This document shows positions 36,246 through 45,249 of a stretch of 64,000 nt of DNA, piece after piece (position 1 is the stretch's first letter; every line of letters starts with the position of its first letter). The notes beneath the pieces are model-generated. The model saw only the letters and a list, made by a program, of their open reading frames with translations, ran no database searches and was not told the DNA's origin. This stretch comes from Cetobacterium somerae ATCC BAA-474 (GTDB lineage: Bacteria; Fusobacteriota; Fusobacteriia; Fusobacteriales; Fusobacteriaceae), in NCBI RefSeq assembly GCF_000479045.1, contig NZ_KI518105.1:1-64000 (forward strand), written 5' to 3'. The position numbers were made by a program, and so were the translations under genes.

Positions 36246-36281
36246 ACATTGTTATCGAAAATAGAAAGTAGGAGGAAAAGG

Positions 36282-37667
36282 ATGAAAAAATCAATATTAG
36301 TAGTTTCAGAAAGAAAAGAAACATTAAAACAAGTAAGAAAAGCTTTATCAGAAGTTTATGAAATAATAACATTTAATAACTTATTAGATGCTCTAGATAT
36401 GTTAAGAGAGAGTGATTTTGACGTAGTTTTATTAGACGAGTATTTAACATGGTTTAACTTTTCAGAAGCTAAGAGAAAGTTAAATGGAATAGGAAAGGAT
36501 TTCGTAGTAATAGGATTACTTGATGAAGAAAACGAAGCTTTAATTCAAGAGATGAAGGAAGCGGATATCTATAACTATTTATTAAAGCCAGTAGATGTTA
36601 AAGAAATGAACAGAATAATGATACCAGCTTTAAGAAGCTTAGAGATAGTAAAAGAGAAGAGAAAATTAGAAGAGAAGCTTTCAGATACAGAAGATGAGAA
36701 TGAAATAATTGGACAATCTGCAAGAATTAAAGAGGTAAAAAACTTAATTGATAAAGTAGCAGAGAGCGACTTAACTGTTTTAATAACAGGAGAAAATGGA
36801 GTTGGAAAAGAGTTAATTGCTAAAGAGATATTCAAAAAGAGTGATAGAAGAAAAGAAAACTATATAACAATTTCATGTGCTTCTTTACCAGAAGATTTAA
36901 TTGAAAGAGAGTTATTTGGTTATGAAAGAGGAGCATTCTTAGGAGCAACTACAAGTAAAAAAGGAATTTTAGAAGAAGCAGATGGTGGAACTGTATTCCT
37001 TGATGAAATATCAGCAATGGATTTAAAAGCTCAATCGAAAGTTCTTAGAGTTATCGAATATGGAGAATTTAGAAGAGTTGGTGGAAATAAATCAAGAAGA
37101 GTAGACGTTAGATTTATAGTATCTACTAATAAGGATTTAAAAGAGGAAACAGAAAAAGGTAAATTTAGAAAAGATTTATATCATAGATTAACAGCTTTCC
37201 CAATTGAAGTAGCGCCTTTAAGAGATAGAAAAGATGATATTCCTATGTTAGCAAACTACTTCTTAAATAAAATTGTAAAAGATTTAAGAAGAGAAATACC
37301 TGTTATTTCAGGAGATGCTATGAAGTATTTAATGGAATACTCATATCCAGGAAATATAAGAGAGTTAAAAAATATGATTGAAAGAATGGTAATTTTATGT
37401 AACGATAGAAATATTGATGTAGAAGATTTACCATTAGAAATAAAAATGAAATCTGATACAGTTGAAAATAAAACTGTTATTGGAGTAGGACCTTTAAAAA
37501 ATATATTAGAGCAAGAGATATATGCTTTAGATGAAGTTGAAAAGGTAGTAATCGCAATGGCATTACAAAAAACAAGATGGAATAAACAAGAAACATCTAA
37601 GCTTTTAGGAATTGGAAGAACAACTCTTTATGAAAAAATCAGAAAATATGGGTTAGATACAAAATAA
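36282..37667 (+). CDS. NtrC-family AAA+ activator with altered GAFTGA loop (GAFLGA)
   Basis: Layout: receiver-like domain (1-115), linker, AAA+ domain (about 143-375) and Fis-type helix-turn-helix (430-461, WNKQETSKLLGIGRTTLYEKI). Walker A is GENGVGKE (170-177) and Walker B VFLDEI. The loop that contacts sigma-54 normally reads GAFTGA; here it is GAFLGA (217-222). The receiver keeps D52 and K102 but has S9-E10 where two acidic residues usually bind Mg. No histidine kinase gene is adjacent. An upstream in-frame ATG at 36249 lies too close to the promoter; TAGGAGG places the start at 36282 (461 residues). A PpiD-like gene follows by 30 bases. Confidence 0.85.
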   Translation: MKKSILVVSERKETLKQVRKALSEVYEIITFNNLLDALDMLRESDFDVVLLDEYLTWFNFSEAKRKLNGIGKDFVVIGLLDEENEALIQEMKEADIYNYLLKPVDVKEMNRIMIPALRSLEIVKEKRKLEEKLSDTEDENEIIGQSARIKEVKNLIDKVAESDLTVLITGENGVGKELIAKEIFKKSDRRKENYITISCASLPEDLIERELFGYERGAFLGATTSKKGILEEADGGTVFLDEISAMDLKAQSKVLRVIEYGEFRRVGGNKSRRVDVRFIVSTNKDLKEETEKGKFRKDLYHRLTAFPIEVAPLRDRKDDIPMLANYFLNKIVKDLRREIPVISGDAMKYLMEYSYPGNIRELKNMIERMVILCNDRNIDVEDLPLEIKMKSDTVENKTVIGVGPLKNILEQEIYALDEVEKVVIAMALQKTRWNKQETSKLLGIGRTTLYEKIRKYGLDTK

Positions 37668-41415: not shown

Positions 41416-42657
41416 ATGAAGGAGTTTATAAAAAATGAAAAGGTTTTAGCTTTATTAAGAAAGGCAATGGAAAATAAAGTAATAAGCTATGAAGAGATTA
41501 ATAGCCAATTAAGTGCAGATTTTCCGCCAGAAAGAATAGAGTTTTTAATAAATGGAATGACAGAACAGGGAATAAAAATCATTTCCCAAGAAGAAGTAAA
41601 GAAACAGGAAAATATTAAGAGAAAAGACGATGGTAGAAAAGATGTAAAAAAAGTTATAACTCCACTATTAAAAAGACCTGTTGTTGAATTAGATGAAGAT
41701 GAGGATGAAGAAGAAAAAAGTAGCAGTACTGAATATTCAGATGATTTCGATTTTAATCCAGATGAAATTGAAGAGGTAACTGAAGATGATTTAGTAAATG
41801 ATGATTTATTTAGTATAACTGGTGAAATGGAAGTAGACGAGCCTATAAAGATGTATTTAAGAGAAATCGGACAGATTCCATTATTAACTCATGAAGAAGA
41901 GTTAGGATATGCAAAAGCAGCTTTAGAAGGAGACGAATACTCTCAACAACAACTTATTGAAGCAAACCTTAGACTAGTTGTAAGTATAGCTAAAAAACAT
42001 ACAAATAGAGGTTTAAAGTTATTAGACTTAATTCAAGAAGGAAATATAGGATTGATGAAAGCGGTAGAAAAGTTTGAATATAGTAAGGGATATAAATTCT
42101 CTACATATGCTACTTGGTGGATAAGACAAGCTATTACAAGAGCAATAGCTGACCAAGGAAGAACAATTCGTATACCAGTTCATATGATAGAAACTATTAA
42201 TAAAATTAAAAAAGAAGCTAGAATATACCTTCAAGAAACAGGAAAAGATGCTACTCCAGAAGTTTTAGCTGATAGATTAGGAATGGAAGTTGAAAAAATT
42301 AAAAGTATTCAAGAGATGAATCAAGATCCAATATCTTTAGAAACTCCAGTTGGAAGTGAAGAGGATAGTGAATTAGGAGATTTCGTAGAAGATAATAAAA
42401 TGCAAAATCCATATGAATTAACAAATAGAACTTTACTTAGAGAGCAATTAAATGATGTTTTAAAAACTTTAAGTAGCAGAGAAGAGCAAGTTTTAATCTT
42501 TAGATACGGATTAAATGATGGTGCACCAAAAACTCTAGAAGAGGTTGGAAAAATATTTAAAGTAACAAGAGAAAGAATCAGACAAATAGAGGTTAAAGCA
42601 CTTAGAAAATTAAGACATCCAAGTAGAAGAAAGAAACTAGAAGATTTTAAAGTATAA
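41416..42657 (+). CDS. rpoD: Primary RNA polymerase sigma factor RpoD
   Basis: This is the housekeeping sigma-70. Region 1.1-like acidic N-terminus (1-135) precedes region 1.2 ([16 protein letters not shown], from 142), region 2 with [16 protein letters not shown] (from about 203) and [17 protein letters not shown] for -10 recognition and melting. Region 3 follows, then region 4 with [20 protein letters not shown] for the -35 element (from about 382). Length 413 residues is typical of non-enteric RpoD. AGGAGG precedes the ATG. A strong terminator follows, before a degenerate paralogue. Confidence 0.98.
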
Positions 42658-42663
42658 AACAAT

Positions 42664-42696
42664 ATGGGGGAGATTTCTATCCCCCATTTTATTATT
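42664..42696 (+). terminator. Rho-independent terminator after rpoD
   Basis: ATGGGGGA (42664-42671) and TCCCCCAT (42680-42687) form a G/C-rich stem, followed by TTTTATTATT. It separates rpoD from the following sigma-like gene, which has no clear promoter of its own. Confidence 0.88.
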
Positions 42697-42715: not shown

Positions 42716-43549
42716 ATGAAGATAAAAGCATTTGAAAAAGAGATATTAGAAAATTGTATTGATGATAAGGACTTTGTAAAATTTTTAAAAGAGAATTCAA
42801 ATTTAAAATTAGAATTAGAAACTGTAGATATAAGAAAAGAAGAAAAGGTTGAAGAGAATAGTTATGTAGTAGAAGGGATTGTTGGAGAGTATTTAGAGGA
42901 GATCTCTTATATTCAACCACTTTCAAAAGAGGAACTAGAAACTGTTTTAGAAACTTTAGATGAAGAAGAAAGTGCTCATAAATTAATAGAGAGTAATTTA
43001 AGAGAAGTTGCAAATATAGCTTTTGATTATTTAATAGCTGGAATTGATTATTTAGATTTAATTCAAGAGGGAAATATTGGAGTAATAAAATCTTTAGAAG
43101 AGTATAGACCATCAAATGGAGATATTATAGAGTATATTAAATTATGGGCTAGAAGAGAGATGTTACTATTTGTAGATGAAAAAGTAGAAACAGAAAAGTA
43201 TATGTATAAAGGATACTTCTCAAAAAGAAAAGAGGAGTTAATAGAGCATGAAATTGTAGCAGAGTTAGAGGAAGAGGATACTGACGAGATTCCTTTAGAT
43301 GAAAAATCAGAAATAATAGAAGAAAAAATAAATGAAGTTGAAAAACTTGATTATAATTCAGTTCTTAAAAAAATATCTCACTTAGAAGAGGAGATTTTAA
43401 AAAGATACTATGGATTAATCGGAGATAAAAGAGAATCTCTATTTGAAATTGAAAATGCATTAGATTTAAAAAGAGGAGAAGGTGAGCAGCTATTTGAAGA
43501 AGCTCTAACAAAAATATCTTTAGGAGGAGGAAGAAGTTTAAAGATATGA
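42716..43549 (+). CDS. Degenerate sigma-70-like protein (RpoD paralogue)
   Basis: The 277-residue protein aligns by eye with RpoD just upstream. Residues 57-70 (GEYLEEISYIQPLS) match region 1.2, and 90-127 ([28 protein letters not shown]) match regions 2.1-2.2, including the core-RNAP-binding LIQEGNIG. Residues 131-156, where the -10-recognising [13 protein letters not shown] should be, read GDIIEYIKLWARREML, without the aromatic melting residues. Region 3 is replaced by an acidic linker. Residues 216-267 resemble region 4 (EEEILKRYYGL) but lack the RxRIRQIE recognition helix. It may bind core polymerase without recognising promoters. It overlaps the Nif3 gene by four bases. Confidence 0.75.
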   Translation: MKIKAFEKEILENCIDDKDFVKFLKENSNLKLELETVDIRKEEKVEENSYVVEGIVGEYLEEISYIQPLSKEELETVLETLDEEESAHKLIESNLREVANIAFDYLIAGIDYLDLIQEGNIGVIKSLEEYRPSNGDIIEYIKLWARREMLLFVDEKVETEKYMYKGYFSKRKEELIEHEIVAELEEEDTDEIPLDEKSEIIEEKINEVEKLDYNSVLKKISHLEEEILKRYYGLIGDKRESLFEIENALDLKRGEGEQLFEEALTKISLGGGRSLKI

Positions 43550-44334
43550 AGCTAAGTAAAATTATAAATTTTTTAGAAGAGAAATTTCCAACTTCTTTAG
43601 CTGAAGATTGGGACAATGTAGGATTATTAATAGGAAAAAGGGATTCGAAAATAACTGGAATTTTATTATCATTAGATTTAACAGAGAGTGTTATTGATAA
43701 AGCGATTGAAGCAGGTGCAAATCTAATAATAACGCATCACCCGGTAATCTTTACATCTTTGAAAAAGATAACTAATGACACTTTAGCAGGACGAAAAATA
43801 ATAAAATTAATAGAAAATGGAATTTCAGTATACTCAATGCATACAAATTTAGATTCAGGAAAATCAGGATTAAATGATTTTTTAGGTGAGAATATACTTG
43901 GAATGAAAAATGGAAAAATACTTGATCCAATGGAAAGTAATGGAAGAGAGTATGGGATTGGAAGAGTTTATAAACTAGATGAAAGTTTAAGTATAGAAAA
44001 TTTATCGAATTTATTGAAAGAAAAGTTAAATTTAAATAGTATAAATGTAGTAAGATCAAAAGAAGAAAGAGAGATAAAAAAAATCTCTTTAGTCAGTGGG
44101 GCAGGGGCGTCTTATTGGAGAAAAGCTAAAAAATTAGGAGCACAAGTTCTAATTACAGGAGATATAAAATATCATGAAGCTATGGATGCAAGAGAGGAAA
44201 ATTTTACTTTGATTGATATAGGTCATTTTGAAAGTGAGTGGATATTTTCAAACTTGTTGGAAAGTTTATTGAAAAAAGAGTTTGAAATAGAAATTTCAAT
44301 ATACAATGATGGCCCAATATTTCAAAAAATGTAA
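43546..44334 (+). CDS. Nif3-like dinuclear metal-centre protein
   Basis: This 262-residue protein belongs to the NIF3/DUF34 (YqfO) family: hexameric rings with a two-metal site. Metal ligands include ITHHPVIFTSLK histidines (about residues 64-65), the HTNLDSGKSG segment and, near the end, IDIGHFESEW. The family's substrate is uncertain; some are called GTP cyclohydrolase I type 2, without good proof. ATGA overlap with the sigma-like gene indicates coupling, and in many Firmicutes this gene lies after rpoD (sigA), so the order is old. Confidence 0.9.
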   Translation: MKLSKIINFLEEKFPTSLAEDWDNVGLLIGKRDSKITGILLSLDLTESVIDKAIEAGANLIITHHPVIFTSLKKITNDTLAGRKIIKLIENGISVYSMHTNLDSGKSGLNDFLGENILGMKNGKILDPMESNGREYGIGRVYKLDESLSIENLSNLLKEKLNLNSINVVRSKEEREIKKISLVSGAGASYWRKAKKLGAQVLITGDIKYHEAMDAREENFTLIDIGHFESEWIFSNLLESLLKKEFEIEISIYNDGPIFQKM

Positions 44335-44346
44335 GGAGAACATAGG

Positions 44347-44910
44347 ATGCTAAAAAAAGTTATGGTAGGTTCATTGATATTTTCTACTTTGGTCCTTGGA
44401 AAAATAAATGATTATAGAAATGTTTTTTCAGAAGATGATAAATCAAATTTATTGACAGTTGTAGAAACTTTCCAAGAAAAAACAGGAGATAAACTTTATC
44501 TGAATACTTTAGAAGAAAATGAAGGTTTTGAGGCAGATGAACAAGAGAAAACAGTTATTGTAAATTTAATAAAAAATAATGAAAATGATGTTTTAAAGGT
44601 ACAATTAAAAATTTCACAGGATTTAAATCCTGAAGATATGGCTTCAGATTTATCGTTATTATTAACAAATGTGGAAGAGTATGTAGGTGAAAAAAATGAG
44701 ACTCTGATAGCAACAAATCTAGTTGAGGGGTTACAAGAGATATTTGTAGCAACATCTGATTCTCAAGAGAATAGTAAAGATTTAGAACAGATGTCACTAG
44801 GTACTAAGGTATTTTTAGGAATTTTGTTGACATTTTTAGTATTATCTATTAGAATAATACAGGTAAAAAGAAAAAAGAAAAAATACAAGTTAAAAAGTGA
44901 TAGGTATTAG
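44347..44910 (+). CDS. Membrane protein with signal peptide and TPM-like extracytoplasmic domain
   Basis: This 187-residue protein has a signal sequence (1-18), an acidic extracytoplasmic domain (about 20-145) and one C-terminal membrane span (about 151-168), then a basic tail (RKKKKYKLK). The start of the domain, INDYRNVFSEDDKSNLLTVVETFQEKTG, resembles TPM-domain proteins, although later TPM features are weak. Its function is not known. AAGGAG precedes the ATG. Its last 84 bases hold a perfect promoter (44827-44855) and the 5' end of the rnpB gene, so the two genes overlap. Confidence 0.7.
   Translation: MLKKVMVGSLIFSTLVLGKINDYRNVFSEDDKSNLLTVVETFQEKTGDKLYLNTLEENEGFEADEQEKTVIVNLIKNNENDVLKVQLKISQDLNPEDMASDLSLLLTNVEEYVGEKNETLIATNLVEGLQEIFVATSDSQENSKDLEQMSLGTKVFLGILLTFLVLSIRIIQVKRKKKKYKLKSDRY
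44827..44855 (+). promoter_or_regulatory. Consensus promoter for rnpB inside the upstream coding region
   Basis: TTGACA (44827-44832), 17 bases and TAGAAT (44850-44855). A start at about 44862 would leave a leader of some 37 bases to trim from the RNase P RNA. The promoter lies in codons for the membrane span of the preceding protein. Confidence 0.75.
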
Positions 44911-45234
44911 AGTTAATCGCTTGCGTTAGCAAGAGGAAAGTCCGGGCTCCACAGAGCGAAAAGGGTAGCTAACGGCTACTAAAGGAAACTTTAAGGAAAG
45001 TGCCACAGAAAATAGACCGCTACATTTTGTAGTAAGGGTGAAAAGGCGGTGTAAGAGACCACCAGTTCTTTAGGAGACTAAAGAAGCTAGGTAAACCCCC
45101 TTTGGAGCAAGACTAAATAGGAGAGAATAGGGGCTGCTCGTCCTCTCTCAGGGTAAGTTGCTTGAAGCTATAAGCAATTATAGCTCTAGATAAATGATTG
45201 ACAAATACAAAACCCGGCTTATTTAATGCCTATC
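44899..45234 (+). ncRNA. rnpB: RNase P RNA (bacterial type A-like)
   Basis: This is the catalytic RNA of RNase P, which cuts tRNA 5' leaders. The conserved blocks are in order: GAGGAAAGTCCGGGCTCC (44933-44950), ACAGAAAATAGACCGC (45005-45020), the GGTAAACCCC loop that pairs with tRNA CCA (45090-45099), and AGATAAATGATTGAC followed by AACCCGGCTTA (45188-45221). The ends pair as helix P1: GATAGG-T-ATTA (44899-44909) with TAAT-G-CCTATC (45224-45234). So the mature 5' end lies about 11 bases inside the upstream reading frame. Total length is about 336 bases. Confidence 0.95.
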
Positions 45235-45249
45235 AATAATAAACAACTG

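What the first reader, a model, noticed from the sequence alone, without database searches (positions are those of the whole stretch)
42716..43549. Second sigma-70-like protein next to rpoD that has lost its promoter-reading parts
Seen: it aligns with the neighbouring RpoD in regions 1.2 and 2.1-2.2, including the LIQEGNIG core-polymerase contact. In place of the -10-melting segment ([11 protein letters not shown]) it has EYIKLWARREM, and the -35 recognition helix (RERIRQIE) is absent; a glutamate-rich linker replaces region 3. It lies behind the rpoD terminator and is coupled to the Nif3-family gene. Established: sigma region 2.2 is the main docking site on core RNA polymerase. Inference: the protein may occupy core polymerase without promoter recognition, as a competitor of sigma, a storage or anti-sigma-like factor, or a regulator that needs another DNA-binding partner.
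Basis: partly seen in the sequence, partly recalled or inferred. Interest (0 to 1): 0.75.

Follow-up and report, generated by a model that had tools for sequence, protein, structure and literature searches.

The report
Sigma factor that lost promoter reading
Next to the gene for the main transcription-start factor of fusobacteria lies a second, related protein that has kept the parts that should grip RNA polymerase but lost the parts that read promoters; nearly the whole group keeps it and the loss happened several times, so it probably controls the polymerase without choosing genes itself.

Summary
The ORF at 42716-43549 (277 aa, Cetobacterium) is a sigma-70 family protein (Pfam Sigma70_r2 above cut-off; AlphaFold pLDDT 88, Foldseek best match SigA). 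Y430 and W434 of region 2.3 also remain.

Orthologues form one clade, sit directly before nif3 in 65 of 65 loci, and mostly within 200 bp of rpoD, in about 84 of 98 Fusobacteriota genomes. Early-branching genera carry a full-length sigma in the same slot. The degenerate form arose three to four times. Core-contact positions did not decline (-0.01) while DNA-contact positions fell by 0.40. dN/dS is 0.06-0.19. The Fusobacterium nucleatum protein (FN1317, inferred from gene order) was detected by proteomics.

Best explanation: a promoter-blind sigma derivative that occupies core RNA polymerase and competes with RpoD or other sigmas. Core binding is inferred, not shown. No functional study was found.

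The parts
42716..43549 (+). sigX: degenerate sigma-70 family protein, 277 aa
   Evidence: orthologues
42875..42922 (+). region 1.2 remnant (residues 54-69, GIVGEYLEEISYIQPL)
   Evidence: alignment with RpoD; Y59, L60, E61, E62 nearly invariant in A1
42989..43105 (+). regions 2.1-2.2 (residues 92-130): predicted docking helix for the beta-prime coiled coil; G109, Q117, E118, G119 invariant
43106..43186 (+). regions 2.3-2.4 (residues 131-157): -10 reading segment, altered; keeps Y430 (Y140) and W434 (W144), loses W433, T429, Q437, T440
43187..43351 (+). long helix and acidic linker (residues 158-212) in place of region 3
   Evidence: no region 3 hit in Pfam
43352..43429 (+). region 4.1 (residues 213-238), aromatic-Gly motif YYGL kept
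43430..43519 (+). region 4.2 helix-turn-helix (residues 239-268), recognition helix rewritten and acidic (GxGExxF); S241, E246, G256, F260, S268 invariant
41416..42657 (+). rpoD, housekeeping sigma factor
42664..42687 (+). terminator-like hairpin between rpoD and sigX
   Evidence: 30 of 60 intergenic regions have one by a simple rule
43546..44334 (+). nif3 (DUF34/NIF3), start overlaps the sigX stop
   Evidence: PF01784, 286 bits; adjacency 65 of 65, overlap 54 of 65

Best explanation
sigX is a former alternative sigma factor that has become a promoter-blind, core-RNA-polymerase-binding protein. It probably docks like a sigma, region 2.1-2.2 on the beta-prime coiled coil and region 4.1 on the beta flap. 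It cannot melt or read a promoter in the usual way because the -10 segment is altered, region 3 is gone and the -35 helix carries reversed charge. By occupying core it would compete with RpoD and other sigmas, acting as a sigma antagonist or a holder of idle polymerase, perhaps dosed by its place directly behind rpoD. Shown here: ancestry, synteny, selective loss of DNA-contact positions, purifying selection. Inferred: core binding, absence of promoter recognition, competition.
For: The 38 sigX rows tested form one clade (SH-aLRT 100) in one slot: nif3 adjacent in 65 of 65 loci, rpoD within 200 bp in 59 of 63. Full-length sigmas occupy the slot in families f2 and f3 and early-branching f1 genera; the degenerate state needs 4 changes on the RpoD tree, at least 3 forced by supported branches. 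From full-length to degenerate, similarity at core and flap contacts changes by -0.01 and at DNA contacts by 0.40 (permutation p 0.005). In the crown clade Q406, E407, G408 and G564 are kept in 38 of 38, position 563 is always aromatic and 598 always hydrophobic, while R588 is E in 36 of 38 and R599 is S in 38 of 38. Net charge of the helix-turn-helix: RpoD +5.6, full-length +3.7, crown -3.6. dN/dS 0.06-0.19. FN1317 is reported as a sigma factor in the F. nucleatum proteome (PMC4234264). No Rsd and no 6S RNA hit in this genome.
Against: No binding data. Y430 and W434 remain, so some single-strand DNA contact is possible. Anti-sigma factors bind the same sigma surfaces as core does, so conservation there does not prove core binding. 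The rewritten helix is among the most conserved parts, which points to an additional specific partner rather than mere occupancy. One clade (Leptotrichiaceae) keeps a weakly basic helix-turn-helix (+2.4). The contact-site sets used come from general knowledge of E. coli sigma-70, not from a solved fusobacterial structure.
Confidence: 0.5

Rival explanations
1. Split-sigma-like co-factor: sigX sits on core and its rewritten region 4 helix docks a separate DNA-binding or regulatory protein, which supplies promoter choice, as phage T4 gp55/gp33 does with the sliding clamp.
For: The altered region 4.2 is the most conserved part of the crown family (3.03 bits; S241, E246, G256, F260, S268 invariant; 83-100% identical between Cetobacterium species), which suggests a specific protein contact. 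T4 gp33 is a precedent: a sigma-4 mimic on the flap that does not read DNA and represses basal transcription (PMC2988020).
Against: No partner gene is linked other than nif3; the new helix motif differs between clades, so a shared partner is not evident.
Confidence: 0.2
2. Sigma mimic that titrates an anti-sigma factor, as PhyR does with NepR, and so frees RpoD or another sigma.
For: Anti-sigma factors bind the same faces of regions 2.2 and 4 (PMC4598750); an RsbW-like kinase domain is encoded in the genome.
Against: No anti-sigma gene was recognised next to sigX in the window or in the loci read; no Rsd homologue.
Confidence: 0.12
3. Still an active alternative sigma with strongly diverged promoter recognition.
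For: Y430 in 36 of 38 and W434 in 30 of 38 are kept; the full-length relatives look like alternative sigmas.
Against: W433 lost, region 3 deleted, helix-turn-helix net charge -3.6, R588 to E; in the crown clade DNA-contact positions fall below background similarity (0.28 against 0.44).
Confidence: 0.12
4. Slow decay of a dispensable sigma gene, kept by linkage to rpoD and nif3.
For: Lost or not found in several small genomes (G017, G064, G082, G083, G091, G092).
Against: dN/dS 0.06-0.19, intact frames, conserved new motifs, protein detected in F. nucleatum, and the gene kept with nif3 after moving away from rpoD (L107, L108, L113).
Confidence: 0.06

Closest known systems
RpoD/SigA and group 2 sigma factors (sigma-70 family)
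   Same: Homologous regions 1.2, 2.1-2.2 and 4; full-length orthologues score best on RpoD/SigA-, RpoS- and MzaA-type models
   Different: Altered -10 segment, no region 3, acidic recognition helix; far below the cut-offs of all named RpoD/RpoS models
Phage T4 gp55 and gp33 (split sigma; gp33 a sigma-4 mimic on the beta flap)
   Same: Flap binding without DNA sequence recognition is the proposed mode; gp33 represses basal transcription (PMC2988020)
   Different: One chain with both domains, chromosomal, clearly homologous to sigma-70; no sliding-clamp epitope identified
PhyR sigma-like domain (anti-anti-sigma of Alphaproteobacteria)
   Different: No receiver domain, derived from an RpoD/group 2-type sigma and not an ECF sigma, core-contact residues kept
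FN1317 of Fusobacterium nucleatum
   Same: By gene order (FN1319 listed under DNA replication, FN1318 and FN1317 as sigma factors) the likely orthologue; detected in the proteome and changed in at least one comparison (PMC4234264)
   Different: Described only as a sigma factor; orthology inferred from order, not tested by sequence here

Membership tests
sigma-70 family (homology) | Region 2 domain by profile | tested here: met
   PF04542 46.7 bits, cut-off 24; 56 of 66 orthologues
sigma-70 family (homology) | Region 4 domain | tested here: met
   Not by Pfam for this protein, but profile slice 35.6 against at most 20.0 in shuffles and Pfam r4 in 21 of 66 orthologues
functional sigma-70 factor | -10 melting and reading residues (W433, W434, Y430, T429, Q437, T440) | tested here: not met
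   Only Y430 and W434 kept
functional sigma-70 factor | Region 3 with 3.2 finger (not universal: ECF sigmas lack region 3) | tested here: not met
   No Pfam r3 hit, 58 against 101 residues
functional sigma-70 factor | Basic -35 recognition helix (R584, E585, R588, Q589) | tested here: not met
   R588 to E in 36 of 38, net charge -3.6
functional sigma-70 factor | Binds core RNA polymerase | not testable with these tools
   Contact positions kept; no binding assay
PhyR-type sigma mimic | Fused receiver domain and linked anti-sigma gene | tested here: not met
   Single 277 aa sigma-like chain; neighbours are rpoD and nif3
Rsd-type anti-sigma factor | Rsd/AlgQ domain | tested here: not met
   Only Sigma70_r2 hit; no Rsd in genome

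The most novel reading that the evidence does not exclude
Fusobacteriota turned an alternative sigma, three to four times in parallel, into a promoter-blind polymerase-binding regulator encoded directly behind rpoD: a cellular, chromosomal dominant-negative sigma that sets how much core polymerase is available, possibly in place of Rsd or 6S RNA.
Probability: 0.35. Interest if true: 0.82.

Novelty: new variant of a known kind. Interest (0 to 1): 0.66.

Why it matters
If true, a whole bacterial phylum that includes well-studied oral and gut species carries a sigma-derived protein acting on polymerase without promoter reading, next to its housekeeping sigma. The full-length relatives in the same gene slot give a natural series from working sigma to promoter-blind protein, so one can test which residues turn a sigma factor into a polymerase regulator. 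It also warns that automatic annotation as a sigma factor is probably misleading here.

Tried and rejected
Rejected: region 4 absent (profile test). Rejected: separate replacements in the slot, because the sigX rows form one clade; long branches leave the order within the clade unsure. Not supported: a link to sigma-54. An NtrC-type activator lies upstream in Cetobacterium, but presence of RpoN does not follow the degenerate state. Whole-chain TM-scores against PDB are low (0.2-0.4), probably because sigma domains are arranged differently in a free model; they do not test single domains, and no domain-level superposition was made. Foldseek against viral models gave ordinary phage sigma factors. 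Searches for papers on degenerate or promoter-blind sigma factors, and on Fusobacterium sigma factors, found no study of this gene. The proteomics supplement with the direction of change of FN1317 could not be read.

Full report
What is there. The ORF 42716-43549 lies between rpoD (41416-42657) and nif3 (43546-44334) in a Cetobacterium genome. It encodes 277 aa with a Sigma70_r2 domain above the Pfam cut-off and matches RpoS, SigA and RpoD models weakly, far below their cut-offs. A hairpin followed by a T-rich tail (42664-42687) separates it from rpoD. Its stop codon overlaps the nif3 start.

Correction of the finding. Region 4 is not missing: SHLEEEILKRYYGLIGDKRESLFEIENALDLKRGEGEQLFEEALTKIS lines up with [48 protein letters not shown]. 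A profile of only this part scores 35.6 against RpoD, while 30 column-shuffled controls reach at most 20.0. In region 2.3 the aligned segment is IIEYIKLWARR, so Y430 and W434 are kept and F427, T429, W433 and Q437 are lost (E. coli numbering).

Distribution. A search of 98 Fusobacteriota genomes and reading of the loci found sigX in about 84. In 65 of 65 loci that hold both, it lies directly before nif3, overlapping in 54. rpoD lies within 200 bp in 59 of 63; in three of the other four the gap is under 700 bp and holds tRNA genes. In genus g27 and in family f6 the sigX-nif3 pair lies away from rpoD (L107, L108, L113, L112). sigX was not found in G017, G064, G082, G083, G091, G092 and G001.

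From full sigma to promoter-blind protein. Early-branching genera of the window's own family (L054, L056, L057, L059-L062, L064, L065) and two other families (L063, L106) carry about 330-356 aa in the same slot with (F/L)(S/T)(S/T)Y(A/S)xWWIK, region 3 and a basic helix-turn-helix. The 38 sigX rows tested are one clade (SH-aLRT 100). On a bootstrap-tested RpoD tree the degenerate state needs 4 changes, at least 3 of them forced by supported branches: the crown of the window's family, genus g14, Leptotrichiaceae and family f6. Regaining region 3 and the aromatic segment is unlikely, so these are read as parallel losses (inference).

What was lost and what was kept. From full-length to degenerate members, similarity to RpoD at nine core- and flap-contact positions does not change (-0.01); at 18 DNA-contact positions it falls by 0.40 (permutation p 0.005). 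In the crown clade the DNA positions (0.28) lie below background (0.44) and the core positions (0.87) well above. Q406, E407, G408 and G564 are invariant in the crown; R588 is E in 36 of 38 and R599 is S in 38 of 38. Helix-turn-helix net charge goes from +5.6 (RpoD) and +3.7 (full-length) to -3.6 (crown). The rewritten helix is among the most conserved parts: 3.03 bits, with region 2.2 at 3.00. The site lists rest on established knowledge of E. coli sigma-70.

Selection and expression. dN/dS between Cetobacterium species is 0.06-0.19, above RpoD (0.03-0.06) and close to or below Nif3 (0.09-0.24). In F. nucleatum, FN1317 and FN1318 are named as sigma factors among proteins whose level changed in mixed communities, and FN1319 is listed under DNA replication (PMC4234264); by order FN1317 is the orthologue (inference).

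Structure. AlphaFold2 with 66 orthologues gives pLDDT 88.3 and pTM 0.87: a sigma-2 like helix set, a continuous helix from 137 to 184 that runs on where region 3 would start, and a C-terminal helix-turn-helix. The best Foldseek match is SigA (E 2.7e-8, probability 1.00), with low whole-chain TM-scores, probably from different domain placement. A Leptotrichiaceae orthologue behaves likewise (pLDDT 82.8; Foldseek E 2.3e-6).

Mechanism. The pattern fits a protein that still grips polymerase but cannot choose promoters. The most economical reading is competition for core with RpoD and other sigmas. Precedent for a flap-bound sigma-4 mimic that represses basal transcription is T4 gp33 (PMC2988020); precedent for a sigma-like domain that binds a protein partner instead of promoters is PhyR (PMC4598750). 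The conserved acidic GxGExxF helix suggests a further protein contact, which keeps a partner-dependent role open. The genome shows no Rsd and no 6S RNA by family search, a weak hint, since both searches could miss distant versions. None of these binding steps has been shown.

Verdict. A new variant of a known kind: a sigma-70 homologue that fails the tested sequence features of promoter reading, is conserved through most of a phylum, and reached this state several times.

Noticed in passing
36249-37667 (+): NtrC-type activator with response-regulator, AAA+ and Fis-type domains whose sigma-54 contact motif reads GAFLGA instead of GAFTGA; it is nearly identical in four other Cetobacterium loci, and RpoN is present in the genome.
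   Followed up: partly
44900-45237 (+): RNase P RNA (RF00010, 299 bits) two genes downstream of nif3's neighbour, overlapping the end of a 187 aa ORF by a few bases.
   Followed up: partly
44347-44910 (+): 187 aa protein with a signal-like start and a C-terminal hydrophobic stretch, no Pfam family, that follows nif3 in many Fusobacteriaceae loci.
   Followed up: partly
L107:2768-4460, L108:2284-3976, L113:2594-4286: In genus g27 the sigX-nif3 pair lies away from rpoD but stays together, so the link to nif3 is more durable than the link to rpoD; a functional tie to the Nif3 protein is untested.
   Followed up: partly
L111:2308-3561: An IS605-type transposase ORF sits between rpoD and sigX in one Leptotrichia-family genome, whose sigX reads as a shorter 253 aa ORF.
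   Followed up: no
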